Notes under the pieces: generated by a model | The model's database searches: none | What the model was told of the DNA's origin: nothing | Seen by the model: only the letters and a program-made list of their open reading frames with translations | Part shown: positions 1 to 15,276 of the stretch, piece by piece | Position numbering within the stretch: the first letter of the stretch is position 1 | Layout: each line of letters starts with the position of its first letter | DNA from: Chitinophagales bacterium | GTDB lineage: Bacteria; Bacteroidota; Bacteroidia; Chitinophagales; LD1 | DNA: 34,442 bases | NCBI GenBank assembly: GCA_016786765.1 | Contig: JAEUUZ010000022.1 | Location: 1 to 34,442, forward strand | Direction of reading: 5' to 3' | Position numbers and translations under genes: made by a program

Positions 1-49
1 CAATCCTTTAGGTTCGTATTTGAATAGAAATATTGAATTTAGCTAAAAG

Positions 50-187
50 AGAAAGTGTTTAAGTAAACTACGCTTCAATCTGAGTAAAACTCATTTAGGG
101 ATAAAGACTTAAACACTTTTTCATCAAAATCTCAAATAGAAATTCGGGATAGTAGCCCATTATTAAGGAGTTGAGTTATTGATGAAA
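50..187 (+). ncRNA. Candidate bridge RNA of the IS110 element
   Basis: Two consecutive stem-loops are visible. Stem-loop 1 has a perfect 13-bp stem (52-64 with 107-119), an internal loop, and an inner hairpin TGAGT/ACTCA (81-85 with 89-93). Its 5' loop strand (69-80, TACGCTTCAATC) equals the left target, and its 3' strand (95-102, TTAGGGAT) is complementary to the right target ATCCCTAA (1211-1218). Stem-loop 2 pairs 121-127 with 179-185 and 131-135 with 171-175, separated by a 3x3 internal loop. Its 5' loop strand (136-143, ATAGAAAT) equals the element's right end (1205-1212), and 165-169 (AAGGA) is complementary to the left end TCCTT (4-8). This is the order target-binding loop then donor-binding loop, with same-sense left guides and antisense right guides, as described for IS621. 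Exact RNA ends are unknown. Confidence 0.8.
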
Positions 188-224
188 ACCTCTTTCAGCG
201 TTTATTAATCGTTAAAACAAATGT

Positions 225-1208
225 ATGGAAAAAATCTTTATTGGAATCGATGTCAGCAAAGAGAGCTTGGACATTTGCATCAAAAAAGGAACTGATTTTT
301 CATTTGAAAAGATTGACAATACCGTTTCGGCTGTGAATCGGTTTGTGAAACAGTTCAAGAAGGAGCAAGATGGTATTGTATTGGCTATGGAAAACACCGG
401 TCGCTACAATGTCCATTTATATGAAGTACTTGAACATCTCACTTGGTCGGTTTATGTCGTAAGCCCACTTCACATCAAAAAGAGTATTGGATTGGTAAGA
501 GGCAAAGATGACAAAACAGATGCTCAACGCATTACTTCTTTTATTGAAAAAAACTACAAAGAATTGCCCTTATGGAAAGCCGATTCGCAGGCATTAAGAC
601 AGCTCAAGGTATTGCAAACAGAAAGGAATACTCGTGTAAAAATGAAATCCAATTTGAAGCAACAACAATCGGATTATAGCCTAATGAAATCAATTGGTAT
701 GGATAAAAAGATAATGAAACTCAATAAGTTGTTGATTGCAACATTAGACAAACAAATTACTGAATTAGAGGCTCAAATAGAAGCGCTTATTAAGCAAGAT
801 GAAGAATTACAGGAACAAGCGCAACGGATACGCACTATACCTGGAGTTGGAAAAGTTCTAAGTTGGATGATGATAAGTAAAACCAACGGTTTTAAGCGAT
901 TTAATAATCCAAGAAAGATGGCGTGTTATGCAGGAGTAGTTCCATTTGATTATCAATCAGGTACTTCCATTCGATACAAACCCAAAGTATCCGTTTTTGC
1001 AGATAAGGAACTTAAAAAGACACTGCATATGGCTGCTATGAGTGCCATACAAATCGATAATGATTTACGAACTTATTACTTGAGAAAGGTAGAAGAAGGG
1101 AAAAATAAAATGTGTGTTTTAAATGCCATTAGAAACAAAATTATTCACAGGATTTTTGCTTTGATCAACCACAAAACTGTTTATCAGAAAAATTTGGTTT
1201 TGCCATAG
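225..1208 (+). CDS. IS110-family transposase (bridge-RNA-guided DEDD recombinase)
   Basis: The 327-residue product has the length and two-domain build of IS110 recombinases. The N-terminal RuvC-like DEDD domain shows D9 (GIDVSKESLDI), E56 (AMENTGR), and D96 and D99 (KDDKTDA). A helical, probably coiled-coil segment spans about 130-200. The C-terminal Transposase_20 domain begins at IPGVGK (205-210) and carries CYAGVVPFDYQSG (234-246), where S245 sits at the position of the catalytic serine known from IS621. Known members use both domains together with a bridge RNA to join donor and target DNA. The frame is intact and no key residue is missing, so activity is plausible. The start ATG at 225 gives the conserved N-terminus; an ATG at 221 is out of frame. 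The stop codon lies inside the left-donor sequence ATAGAAAT. Confidence 0.95.
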   Translation: MEKIFIGIDVSKESLDICIKKGTDFSFEKIDNTVSAVNRFVKQFKKEQDGIVLAMENTGRYNVHLYEVLEHLTWSVYVVSPLHIKKSIGLVRGKDDKTDAQRITSFIEKNYKELPLWKADSQALRQLKVLQTERNTRVKMKSNLKQQQSDYSLMKSIGMDKKIMKLNKLLIATLDKQITELEAQIEALIKQDEELQEQAQRIRTIPGVGKVLSWMMISKTNGFKRFNNPRKMACYAGVVPFDYQSGTSIRYKPKVSVFADKELKKTLHMAAMSAIQIDNDLRTYYLRKVEEGKNKMCVLNAIRNKIIHRIFALINHKTVYQKNLVLP

Positions 1209-1209
1209 A

Positions 1210-1231
1210 AATCCCTAACGCGGCATGCTGC
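1210..1231. repeat. Right half of the REP-like repeat split by the IS
   Basis: CTAACGCGGCAT (1215-1226) is identical to the reverse complement of 3514-3525, part of the intact repeat upstream of tgt. It abuts the element's right end. GCGGCATGCTGC (1220-1231) is a near-perfect palindrome with one G.T pair. The left half of the repeat should lie just outside the window; only CAATC (1-5) is visible. Confidence 0.75.
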
Positions 1232-3510: not shown

Positions 3511-3592
3511 TTTATGCCGCGTTAGCGATTGAAGCGTAAATCCTTTTGCGAGGAACGAGCAAAAGATTGTAGCGGAAAGCGCGTTAAAACGC
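3511..3592. repeat. Intact REP-like palindromic repeat (target family of the IS110 element)
   Basis: 3514-3538 read on the minus strand give TACGCTTCAATC, then G, then CTAACGCGGCAT. This is the same sequence the IS110 element has split at 1-5/1215-1226, with C instead of G at the centre. The unit continues with a hairpin CTTTTGC/GCAAAAG (3543-3549 with 3559-3565) and ends with GCGTT/AACGC (3581-3585 with 3588-3592). Such multi-hairpin intergenic units are typical REP/BIME-like elements. The rest of 3227-3668 holds the terminator and promoter listed separately; I see no gene in it. Confidence 0.65.
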
Positions 3593-13345: not shown

Positions 13346-13705
13346 ATGAAAAAGCTATTTACACTTGCAACACTTTCCATCCTAGTTATAACTTCAGCTT
13401 TTGCTTCCGGCCATAAAAAGGAGGTGAGTGGTTTAAAAGCAACCGTACATGAAATTGATGGTATTTATGTATTGGTACCTACCTCTTTTAGTGATCATAA
13501 ATTGATTCCGCTTGGACTTCCTGCTGAATATGAAGTAGAAGGCTTAGAAGTTACAGTAGAAGGAACAATTTCGAAATGTAAAAGTAAACGTATCGATATT
13601 TCAATTAGCGCCATTGCAGTTGAACAAGACGTGCAAAAAAAATTAGGTCTTCACCACATTGAGTATAACAACCGATCATACGCCTTATCCGCATCACGAT
13701 TTTAA
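13346..13705 (+). CDS. Small secreted protein, paralog 1 of 4
   Basis: I do not recognise a named family. The 119-residue protein has a signal peptide (MKKLFTLATLSILVITSAFA, cleavage near residue 20-21) and a mature part of about 98 residues that looks beta-rich. The central motif GLPAEYEVEGLEVTVEGTIS is shared with the next three genes. The C-terminal half (AVEQDVQKKLGLHHIEYN and YALSA) is nearly the same in paralog 2, so these two are recent duplicates. It is probably periplasmic or at the cell surface; it lacks a lipobox Cys. A strong terminator follows, so it is likely transcribed alone. Confidence 0.75.
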   Translation: MKKLFTLATLSILVITSAFASGHKKEVSGLKATVHEIDGIYVLVPTSFSDHKLIPLGLPAEYEVEGLEVTVEGTISKCKSKRIDISISAIAVEQDVQKKLGLHHIEYNNRSYALSASRF

Positions 13706-13724
13706 TTTGTTTTTTTATGTTTTG

Positions 13725-13758
13725 AACGGTCGCTTCTTTGAAGCGGCCGTTTTTTTTT
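13725..13758 (+). terminator. Intrinsic terminator after paralog 1
   Basis: AACGGTCGCTTC (13725-13736) pairs with GAAGCGGCCGTT (13740-13751) through one T.G pair, with a TTT loop and a tail of T to 13758. Confidence 0.85.
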
Positions 13759-13921
13759 GTGGGACTGAATCCTTTTGTTAGCAATGGTTTCAAACATTAT
13801 CTCTGGATGTAGTTCTCCACATTTTTTGGTGGATAACATCGTGCTAAAAGCCGTAACTTGAGGTTGCGAATAGCGTAGATATAAACAGTGATCGTATTTC
13901 ATCATTCTTAAATCTTATGTT

Positions 13922-14278
13922 ATGAAAAACATTTTTACTCTCGCTATCTTAACCCTAATAGCGACCTCTACTTTCGCGCTAACACATCACAAACACATTA
14001 ACGCATTGAAGGCAACAGTGCATGAAGTGAATGGTATGTTCGTATTGATACCCGAACAATTCAGCGATCATAAATTAATTCCACTCGGACTTCCGGCTGA
14101 GTATCAAATCGAAGGTCTTGCAGTTACTGTTGATGGCACTATTTCCCGTTGCAAAAATAAAACTATTGATATTGCTATCAATGCCATAGCCGTGGAGCAA
14201 GATGTTCAAAAGCAACTTGGATTACAGCATATAGAGTACAATATCAAGGCTTACGCACTTTCAGCGGCTAAATTTTAG
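13922..14278 (+). CDS. Small secreted protein, paralog 2 of 4
   Basis: The 118-residue product has a signal peptide (hydrophobic core IFTLAILTLIATSTFA) and aligns with paralog 1 over its whole length. Both share LKATVHE, FSDHKLIPLGLPAEY, the EGL-VTV-GTIS core, the block AVEQDVQK-LGL-HIEYN and the tail YALSA. A pair of basic His/Lys residues follows the cleavage site (THHKHIN). The function is unknown. It has its own upstream region of about 160 bp after the paralog 1 terminator, so it is probably a separate transcript. The level of identity suggests a local tandem duplication. Confidence 0.75.
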   Translation: MKNIFTLAILTLIATSTFALTHHKHINALKATVHEVNGMFVLIPEQFSDHKLIPLGLPAEYQIEGLAVTVDGTISRCKNKTIDIAINAIAVEQDVQKQLGLQHIEYNIKAYALSAAKF

Positions 14279-14342
14279 CCCCATTAACATAGTGCTTTCT
14301 TTTTTTGATAATCAATTAGTTAGAGTTAATTCTGTTGGCTGT

Positions 14343-14368
14343 CTCCTTTTTTTGAAAAAAAAGAGGAG
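14343..14368. repeat. Perfect small inverted repeat between paralogs 2 and 3
   Basis: CTCC plus seven T (14343-14353) is mirrored by a run of A and GGAG (14355-14368, with GA bulged). It could form an RNA hairpin, or be a weak terminator or leader element; no T tail follows. Confidence 0.35.
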
Positions 14369-14432
14369 TAAAGTGAAACATAATTCGCTGAAGGGCGTAC
14401 ATAAGAGTCCTTAACTAACTAATGGATAGATT

Positions 14433-14792
14433 ATGAAAAAGATGTTTACGCTCATTACAATTTGTTTTTTATCGTTTGGTGCCGCATTTGCATCAGGAAA
14501 GGGTAAAGCTATTAGTTCTCTAAAAGCACGCGTTCAGCAAGTTGGAGGTGCTTATGTTCTAGTACCAACTGAATATTGCGGGTACAATTTTAGTCCAATT
14601 GGTTTGCCTGATGAGTATCAGGTTGAAGGATTGACAGTTACTGTAGATGGCATAAGCTATCAAGAAAGAAAGACCAATGCAGATTTAGAAATTCATAAAA
14701 TAGCTGTCGACAAAGATGTAATGGATCAATTGGCATTACGCAATATTGCTTACATTATTAAATCTACTTCAAAACAAGTATTGAACTACTAA
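14433..14792 (+). CDS. Small secreted protein, paralog 3 of 4
   Basis: The 119-residue protein has a signal peptide (MFTLITICFLSFGAAFA) and keeps the core of paralogs 1 and 2: LKARVQQVGGAYVLVPTEY, then GLPDEYQVEGLTVTVDG, and IAVDKDVMDQLALRNI. It has lost the YALSA tail and gained a Cys in the middle (TEYCGYNF). It is clearly homologous but diverged. The function is unknown; export to the periplasm or surface is inferred from the signal peptide. A terminator follows at 14809-14850. Confidence 0.72.
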   Translation: MKKMFTLITICFLSFGAAFASGKGKAISSLKARVQQVGGAYVLVPTEYCGYNFSPIGLPDEYQVEGLTVTVDGISYQERKTNADLEIHKIAVDKDVMDQLALRNIAYIIKSTSKQVLNY

Positions 14793-14808
14793 TAGTTTCA
14801 GAATAGTT

Positions 14809-14850
14809 AAACGGCTGTTCCCTTTCAAAAGGAGCGGCCGTTTTGTTTTT
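14809..14850 (+). terminator. Intrinsic terminator after paralog 3
   Basis: AACGGC (14810-14815) pairs with GCCGTT (14837-14842), and an inner CCTTT/AAAGG (14821-14825 with about 14828-14832) closes the hairpin. T-rich sequence follows to 14850. Confidence 0.7.
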
Positions 14851-14877
14851 TTAGGCATTCGATTTCATCCATTAGTC

Positions 14878-14885
14878 TATATTTG
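14878..14885 (+). promoter_or_regulatory. -7 box upstream of paralog 4 and gldA
   Basis: TATATTTG fits TAnnTTTG exactly and lies 40 bp before the ATG at 14926. I see no clear -33 TTG at the usual distance. It follows directly on a terminator, as expected for a new transcript. Confidence 0.4.
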
Positions 14886-14925
14886 GCACGATTCTTTTCT
14901 ATCTTTATTTTGAAAGCATAAACGA

Positions 14926-15276
14926 ATGAAGCGTATAATATCGGTTGTATTTATCTTTTTTACCTTGTCTGCATTCGCACAAACGGGCGGCTTTGATTTT
15001 AAAATTCCGGTGCGAAATGTAAAAGGTGTGGTTAAGAAACTCAATAGCGAACTCACCGTTATCGAGTTAGTGAAAAATGCCAATAAGCGTTATGTTGCCT
15101 CAAACCTACCGGATGAATTTAAAAAGGACGGCTTGCATGTTACTTTAAGTGGTTTGGAAGCTCCAATTCCTCCCTATATCCGAATGGCAGGTACACCCAT
15201 CAAATTGAAAAGTATAAAAGTGACTACCAAAGAACAGAAGTCATTCAAATTGACCAAAAAGAAATATAAACTCTAA
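14926..15276 (+). CDS. Small secreted protein, diverged paralog 4, upstream of gldA
   Basis: The 116-residue product has a signal peptide (VVFIFFTLSAFAQ) and a basic, beta-rich mature part. It retains the core motif as NLPDEFKKDGLHVTLSGLEA, but the rest (PPYIRMAGTPIKLKSIKV) is unlike paralogs 1-3. The C-terminus is very lysine-rich (KLTKKKYKL). The G-P segment RMAGTPIKL is reminiscent of small exported Bacteroidota proteins seen elsewhere, but I cannot name a family. The stop codon lies only 3 bp before the gldA start, so the two are almost certainly co-transcribed. Whether it takes part in gliding is not shown. Confidence 0.72.
   Translation: MKRIISVVFIFFTLSAFAQTGGFDFKIPVRNVKGVVKKLNSELTVIELVKNANKRYVASNLPDEFKKDGLHVTLSGLEAPIPPYIRMAGTPIKLKSIKVTTKEQKSFKLTKKKYKL

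What the first reader, a model, noticed from the sequence alone, without database searches (positions are those of the whole stretch)
1..1226. A complete bridge-RNA system can be decoded from sequence: both loops match their donor and target
The 5' region of the IS110 element folds into two stem-loops with internal loops. Loop 1: its 5' strand 69-80 (TACGCTTCAATC) equals the left target, where CAATC (1-5) is visible and the rest agrees with an intact copy of the target repeat at 3527-3538. Its 3' strand 95-102 (TTAGGGAT) is the exact complement of the right target 1211-1218. Loop 2: its 5' strand 136-143 (ATAGAAAT) equals the right element end 1205-1212, extendable to 145 with one G.U pair. 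Its 3' strand 165-169 (AAGGA) complements the left element end 4-8. Four guide matches with the right polarity and the right order (target loop before donor loop) are hard to explain by chance. This gives a naturally programmed recombinase from Bacteroidota with a readable target rule.
Basis: partly seen in the sequence, partly recalled or inferred. Interest (0 to 1): 0.92.

Follow-up and report, generated by a model that had tools for sequence, protein, structure and literature searches.

The report
IS110 bridge-RNA element targeting Flavo-1 repeats
This is a jumping gene of the known IS110 kind whose small guide RNA can be read base by base: it directs the element into a repeated DNA motif (Flavo-1) that is scattered over this bacterium's genome, and more than forty relatives show the guides changing together with the sites they hit.

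Summary
Window 6-1213 is a complete IS110-group element with a DEDD+Ser recombinase (CDS 225-1208) and a two-loop bridge RNA upstream of it. All four guide matches are present at the stated coordinates. Across 46-50 distinct related elements the target guides fit their own flanks far better than permuted flanks (z about 15 for each guide). This also holds between reciprocal nearest relatives (8 wins, 0 losses, 3 ties for each guide). RNA helices covary, and donor guides change with element ends. The left guide is 72-80 (9 nt), not 69-80. The right guide is 95-99; G100 pairs with the core and 101-102 act as handshake guide. In this genome 5 left and 4 right junctions lie in or fit Flavo-1 (RF01705), a family of about 70 copies, in the subset that best fits the guides. 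Two additions: joining the element ends creates a Bacteroidota-type promoter (41 of 41 elements), and a sister clade pairs as if the shared core were one base with a two-base handshake. The kind is known (bridge RNA, 2024), so this is a new member; Flavo-1 as an IS110 landing site appears unreported in the papers searched.

The parts
1..5 (+). Left target remnant CAATC (end of the disrupted Flavo-1 copy); C5 is the base shared with the donor (position 9)
   Evidence: all five left junctions in the genome end in CAATC inside Flavo-1 sequence
6..1213 (+). IS110-group element, conserved ends CTTTAGG ... CATAGAAATC (C1213 is the shared core base)
   Evidence: Multi-copy in the genome with constant ends and changing flanks; same ends in relatives
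9..16 (+). TAGGTTCG, -7 box (TAnnTTTG type) of the promoter formed when the ends join in a circle
   Evidence: 41 of 41 distinct elements have TAnnTTTG at 5/6 or better here with TTG exactly 20 nt upstream across the junction
1193..1196 (+). TTTG, -33 box of the circle-junction promoter, inside the end of the recombinase gene
   Evidence: TTG kept at the same distance whether in frame (31), out of frame (7) or outside the CDS (3); shuffled right ends give mean 7.6, maximum 15 of 41
21..190 (+). Predicted bridge RNA (start inferred from the -7 box; end not mapped)
   Evidence: Fold z -3.61 over 28-200; covarying structure in 32 sequences
49..64 (+). Target-loop stem, 5' strand (pairs with 107-122)
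   Evidence: 91.7% of cells paired in helix 1, 11 of 12 pairs with double changes
107..122 (+). Target-loop stem, 3' strand
72..80 (+). Left target guide (LTG) GCTTCAATC
   Evidence: Per-position match to left flank .90 .95 1 .85 .85 .69 .79 .67 .54 then .21 at position 10
82..92 (+). Target-loop hairpin GAGT/ACTC between the two guides
   Evidence: Helix 2, 94.5% paired, 4 of 4 pairs with double changes
95..99 (+). Right target guide (RTG) TTAGG, complement of CCTAA
   Evidence: Per-position .92 .84 .76 .70 .70 then .20
100..102 (+). GAT: G100 pairs with core C; A101 and T102 are handshake bases matching donor positions 8 and 7
   Evidence: Over 41 elements these bases pair with the donor in 1.00 and 0.98, with the target in 0.71 and 0.20
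120..135 (+). Donor-loop stem, 5' strands (120-127 with 179-186; 131-135 with 171-175)
   Evidence: inner helix 91.3% paired, outer helix 60% on an alignment that is poor there
171..186 (+). Donor-loop stem, 3' strands
136..144 (+). Left donor guide (LDG) ATAGAAAT plus a U.G wobble at the core; equals right element end 1205-1213
   Evidence: relatives with other right ends carry the matching LDG (ATAGTAAT, ATAGATAT, ATGGAAAT, ATAGCAATC, TTAGAATG)
165..168 (+). Right donor guide (RDG) AAGG: AAG pairs with CTT at 6-8, G168 with core C5
   Evidence: in L077 a changed RDG (TAATGG) matches a changed left end (CCATTA)
169..170 (+). Donor-loop handshake bases AG, expected to meet target positions 8 and 7 (A169 fits T4, G170 does not fit A3)
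   Evidence: Across relatives these two bases follow the target: own 0.83/0.76, null 0.56/0.43, p<=5e-5
225..1208 (+). IS110 recombinase, 327 aa; D9, E56, D96, D99 and Ser245; its stop codon lies within the donor half-site ATAGAAAT
   Evidence: PF01548 and PF02371; IS621 and ISCro4 matched at 4.9e-21 and 3.5e-21; invariant residues in A1
1205..1213 (+). Left donor half-site ATAGAAATC (right element end)
1214..1226 (+). Right target CCTAA and rest of the disrupted Flavo-1
   Evidence: All four right junctions read AAATC|CCT[A/C]ACGC
3511..3590 (+). Intact Flavo-1 repeat (RF01705), an empty copy of the target family
   Evidence: Rfam 55.3 bits, E 1.5e-9

Best explanation
An IS110-group insertion sequence of a Chitinophagales (Bacteroidota) bacterium that uses a bridge RNA. 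Inferred cycle: the recombinase excises the element as a circle; joining right end to left end builds a Bacteroidota sigma-A promoter (TTTG, 20 nt, TAGGTTCG) that transcribes the bridge RNA and then the recombinase. The first RNA loop reads the target GCTTCAATC|CCTAA (guides 72-80 and 95-99). The second loop reads the element's own joined ends ATAGAAATC|CTT (guides 136-144 and 165-168). Top strands would be cut after the shared C and exchanged, with bases next to the core pairing across to the other DNA (handshake). Because the target is part of Flavo-1, the element spreads among the roughly 70 Flavo-1 copies. Shown: anatomy, guide-flank covariation, RNA covariation, target family. Inferred: transcription, excision, strand-exchange chemistry (from IS621).
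For: Protein family and catalytic residues. Five left and four right junctions with constant ends, all left flanks inside Flavo-1. Own-versus-permuted target guides: RTG z 15.4, LTG z 14.9. Nearest-relative swaps 8:0 with 3 ties for each guide. Donor guides follow changed ends, own 7.51 versus null 6.34, maximum 6.87. RNA structure: 86.5% of cells paired against 69.7% in shuffles and 24-52% when slid; 26 of 30 pairs with double changes. Within Flavo-1, used sites fit the guides better than 29 empty copies: LTG 8.4 versus 6.9 of 9, p 0.002; RT 4.5 versus 3.0 of 5, p 0.005. Circle-junction promoter in 41 of 41.
Against: No expression or transposition data. The window's own left flank is cut by the contig end, so its left and right junctions cannot be paired. 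In this element the donor-loop handshake base G170 does not pair with target A3. Outer donor stem is only 60% paired on the alignment used.
Confidence: 0.95

Rival explanations
1. The recombinase itself recognises Flavo-1 (protein-DNA or hairpin recognition), and the guide matches are secondary or coincidental.
For: Flavo-1 is a structured repeat with two similar arms, and all left junctions found lie at the same place in it.
Against: Related recombinases hit unrelated sites that match their own loops. Within Flavo-1 the used copies are those that fit the guides. Four empty copies carry a perfect LTG match on the other arm but not the RT match, and no insertion was found there.
Confidence: 0.03
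2. Chance matches in an AT-rich sequence.
For: The donor octamer ATAGAAAT also occurs at 24-31, so single short matches in this element are not decisive alone.
Against: Permutation nulls never reached the observed means in 20,000 trials; sharp guide borders at 9 and 5 nt; compensatory RNA changes.
Confidence: 0.01
3. A true bridge-RNA element that is now inactive in this genome.
For: No activity data; one handshake base mismatched.
Against: At least five left junctions and four right junctions with near-identical element sequence (99-100% over the 136-146 nt compared) and different flanks, an intact reading frame and catalytic residues point to recent movement.
Confidence: 0.1

Closest known systems
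IS621 (IS110 group, E. coli), bridge-RNA system; Durrant et al. 2024 PMC11208160, Hiraizumi et al. 2024 PMC11208158
   Same: DEDD+Ser recombinase, bridge RNA in the left end upstream of the CDS, target loop before donor loop, LTG 8-9 nt, RTG within 4-7 nt, promoter formed at the joined ends, repeat elements (REP) as targets, handshake bases
   Different: Only a distant protein relative (phmmer 78.9 bits over 311 residues); target is Flavo-1, not REP; promoter is of the Bacteroidota type; the strictly kept core base is C with T before it in most relatives, instead of CT; a sister clade shares only one base between target and donor
ISCro4 transposase (PDB 9t56)
   Same: Best PDB match, E 3.5e-21, nearly full-length alignment
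   Different: Ends, RNA and target not compared here
ISEc21 and other IS110 members with seekRNA; Siddiquee et al. 2024 PMC11187229
   Same: Non-coding region upstream of tnp determines target choice
   Different: Different element and target
REP-targeting IS elements (ISPpu10, ISPa11 and others); Tobes and Pareja 2006 PMC1525189
   Same: IS elements that home on a dispersed extragenic repeat
   Different: The repeat here is Flavo-1 of Bacteroidota

Membership tests
[quoted passage not shown]
   3.8e-22 and 3.2e-22, both over cut-off
IS110 group (IS110/IS1111 family) | Catalytic D, E, D, D and Ser | tested here: met
   D9, E56, D96, D99, S245 G246: by alignment to ISCro4; D9, E56, D96, D99, S245, G246 invariant in A1
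IS110 group (IS110/IS1111 family) | Long non-coding left end, short right end (IS1111 is the reverse) | tested here: met
   Left end about 219 nt; right end 5 nt beyond the stop codon
Bridge-RNA system | Structured RNA with two internal loops upstream of the CDS | tested here: met
Bridge-RNA system | Loop 1 covaries with the target on both sides | tested here: met
Bridge-RNA system | Loop 2 covaries with the element ends | tested here: met
   for LDG; RDG change seen in L077 only
Bridge-RNA system | Promoter formed at the joined ends | tested here: met
   Sequence signature only, 41 of 41; activity not tested
Bridge-RNA system | Core dinucleotide shared by donor and target | tested here: met
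   TC shared in this element; 12 relatives differ at the first core base and share only C
Bridge-RNA system | RNA is expressed, binds the recombinase, directs recombination | not testable with these tools
   Needs bench work
Flavo-1 RNA family (target) | Covariance-model score over Rfam cut-off | tested here: met
   Intact copy 55.3 bits; three disrupted copies over cut-off, two below

The most novel reading that the evidence does not exclude
In this Bacteroidota branch of IS110 the shared core has shrunk to one base (C) in a sister clade, and the handshake guides read two bases across: where target and donor differ at position 8, the target loop's 3' strand pairs with the donor (12 of 12) and the donor loop's 3' strand pairs with the target (6 Watson-Crick plus 5 G.U of 12). 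Such enzymes would be free of the core-dinucleotide constraint of IS621.
Probability: 0.5. Interest if true: 0.6.

Novelty: new member of a known kind. Interest (0 to 1): 0.42.

Why it matters
It gives a naturally multi-copy bridge recombinase from Bacteroidota with a fully read 14-bp target rule and a genome holding tens of near-match sites, which is a natural specificity assay. It ties the unexplained Flavo-1 family to a role as a dispersed DNA landing site, in line with a report that Flavo-1 hits lie in sense or antisense without preference and often outside transcripts (PMC9723704). The promoter signature and the one-base-core clade are directly testable and would matter for engineering these recombinases in Bacteroidota.

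Tried and rejected
First genome-contig scan with the single protein found nothing; the alignment query worked. Blind scans for the right guide over the whole loop with 8-10 nt gave weak signals (z 1.4-1.6) because the guide is only 5 nt plus an anchored GAT; anchoring resolved it. A Flavo-1 model against joined flanks of relatives found only a weak hit for L143 (E 0.016), left open; so Flavo-1 targeting is shown for this genome only. A search for a syntenic empty site through the neighbouring gene gave only distant paralogues. The position-8 trait is one clade on the tree, so its permutation p-value overstates independence. A first pass on the handshake picked some wrong GTT anchors; one search corrects them.

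Full report
What is there. The window is the start of contig C41 of a 3.6 Mb genome. Loci shared with named records place its order as Chitinophagales (inference). Bases 225-1208 encode a 327-aa protein with both IS110 domains, with IS621 and ISCro4 as its only PDB matches. Residues D9, E56, D96, D99 and S245 are invariant among relatives. The element runs from 6 to 1213, and the first five bases of the window, CAATC, are the left target remnant. The same ends occur at eight other places, all at contig ends of the genome: five left ends and, with this one, four right ends, 99-100% identical over 136-146 nt. That is the picture of a recently mobile element collapsed by assembly.

Both stem-loops fold with z -5.05 and -2.60. 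No Rfam model of a bridge RNA fires on the window, so I built the evidence from relatives: 84 loci with a recognisable donor loop, 52 of them with distinct target loops.

Covariation with target. With the conserved GAT as anchor, the five bases before it complement each element's own right flank in 3.92 of 5 positions; permuted flanks give 1.60 and never more than 2.24 in 20,000 trials. Agreement per position is .92 .84 .76 .70 .70 and then falls to .20. For the left guide, agreement from the junction outward is .90 .95 1.00 .85 .85 .69 .79 .67 .54 and then .21; own 6.43 of 8 against 4.51, maximum 5.11. To control for kinship I swapped flanks between reciprocal nearest relatives: own guides win 8, lose 0, tie 3, for both guides. 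So the guides in the window are 72-80 and 95-99. The letters TA at 69-70 belong to a conserved ACTA motif, which explains why no left junction in the genome reads TACGCTT.

Covariation with donor. Most relatives keep ATAGAAAT and CTTTAG, but diverged ones change both the right end and the LDG in the same way, for example ATAGTAAT, ATAGATAT, ATGGAAAT, ATAGCAATC, TTAGAATG. For 45 such elements the longest shared word averages 7.51 against 6.34 (maximum 6.87) under permutation. In L077 a changed left end CCATTA matches a changed RDG TAATGG.

RNA structure. On 32 sequences, 30 pairs are kept in 86.5% of cells, against 69.7% in shuffles and 24-52% when slid; 26 pairs show changes on both sides. The outer donor stem is the weakest part (60%), on columns that are poorly aligned.

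Target family. The intact repeat at 3511-3590 is Flavo-1, RF01705. The genome holds about 70 copies, against 0-22 in 29 family members. All five left junctions are Flavo-1 sequence interrupted at the same place and in the same orientation. Compared with 29 empty copies, used copies fit the guides better on the left (8.4 versus 6.9 of 9, p 0.002) and right (4.5 versus 3.0 of 5, p 0.005); CAATC is in 5 of 5 used and 8 of 29 empty, CCT[A/C]A in 4 of 4 used and 5 of 29 empty. Left and right junctions cannot be paired, so these are separate tests. Flavo-1 has a second arm with GCT.CAATC; four empty copies match the left guide perfectly there, but the bases that follow do not fit the right guide, and no insertion was found in that arm. 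Eight of eight exact CAATCNCT[A/C]ACGC matches in the genome fall in Flavo-1 copies.

Promoter. When right and left ends are joined in the order of a circle, 41 of 41 elements show TTG exactly 20 nt before a TAnnTTTG-type box (at least 5 of 6 letters); shuffled right ends give 7.6 on average. TTG is kept at this place in frame (31), out of frame (7) and outside the CDS (3), so it is not merely a by-product of coding. TAnnTTTG is the -7 consensus of the primary sigma factor in Flavobacterium (PMC9723704); the TTTG box near -33 is from my general knowledge of Bacteroidetes promoters. In IS621 the joined ends form a sigma-70-like promoter (PMC11208160). This is the same arrangement with Bacteroidota signals.

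Core and handshake. Hiraizumi et al. describe handshake guides that pair across after strand exchange, with a signal at position 7 (PMC11208158). Here the two bases after AAGG in the donor loop follow target positions 8 and 7 (0.83 and 0.76 against 0.56 and 0.43, p<=5e-5), and the two bases after G in the target loop pair with donor positions 8 and 7 in 1.00 and 0.98. In 12 elements the target differs from the donor at position 8, so the shared core is one base; there the target loop pairs with the donor 12 of 12 and with the target 0 of 12, and the donor loop pairs with the target in 11 of 12 (6 Watson-Crick, 5 G.U). Eleven of these 12 form one side of a single branch, so this is one origin with variation inside it, and I hold it at even odds.

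Mechanism. Excision to a circle, transcription from the junction, assembly of a recombinase tetramer with target and donor loops, top-strand cutting 3' of the shared C, exchange and resolution are inferred from IS621; nothing here tests chemistry.

Known or new. Bridge RNAs are predicted in most ISfinder IS110 elements (85.7%, PMC11208160) and REP elements are known IS110 targets (PMC1525189; PMC11208160). This is therefore a new member. I found no paper joining Flavo-1 with IS110 in the library searched; the library is partial.

Noticed in passing
window 3511-3590 and about 70 places in G000: Flavo-1 (RF01705) is strongly expanded in this genome (69-71 matches) compared with 0-22 in 29 other genomes of the family; it looks like a REP-like dispersed DNA repeat rather than an ordinary small RNA.
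   Followed up: partly
window 13346-15276: Four small consecutive ORFs (116-119 aa) with signal-peptide-like starts are tandem paralogues (22-68% identity to each other); the two scanned had no Pfam match.
   Followed up: partly
window 1205-1208: The recombinase stop codon TAG lies within the donor half-site ATAGAAAT; 31 of 41 distinct elements share this overlap.
   Followed up: yes
window 24-31: A second ATAGAAAT occurs in the left end outside the donor loop; no role found.
   Followed up: no
L143: A Chryseobacterium sp. FH1 relative sits in sequence resembling Flavo-1 (AAAAAAGGATTTCCACTC), weak model hit E 0.016.
   Followed up: partly
L072 2824-2893: DUF805 RNA (RF03081, 74.8 bits) near a relative of the element.
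   Followed up: no
L126-L142: Salegentibacter maritimus F63223 carries 17 fetched loci with the same related element, most at contig ends, another natural multi-copy test of the target rule.
   Followed up: partly
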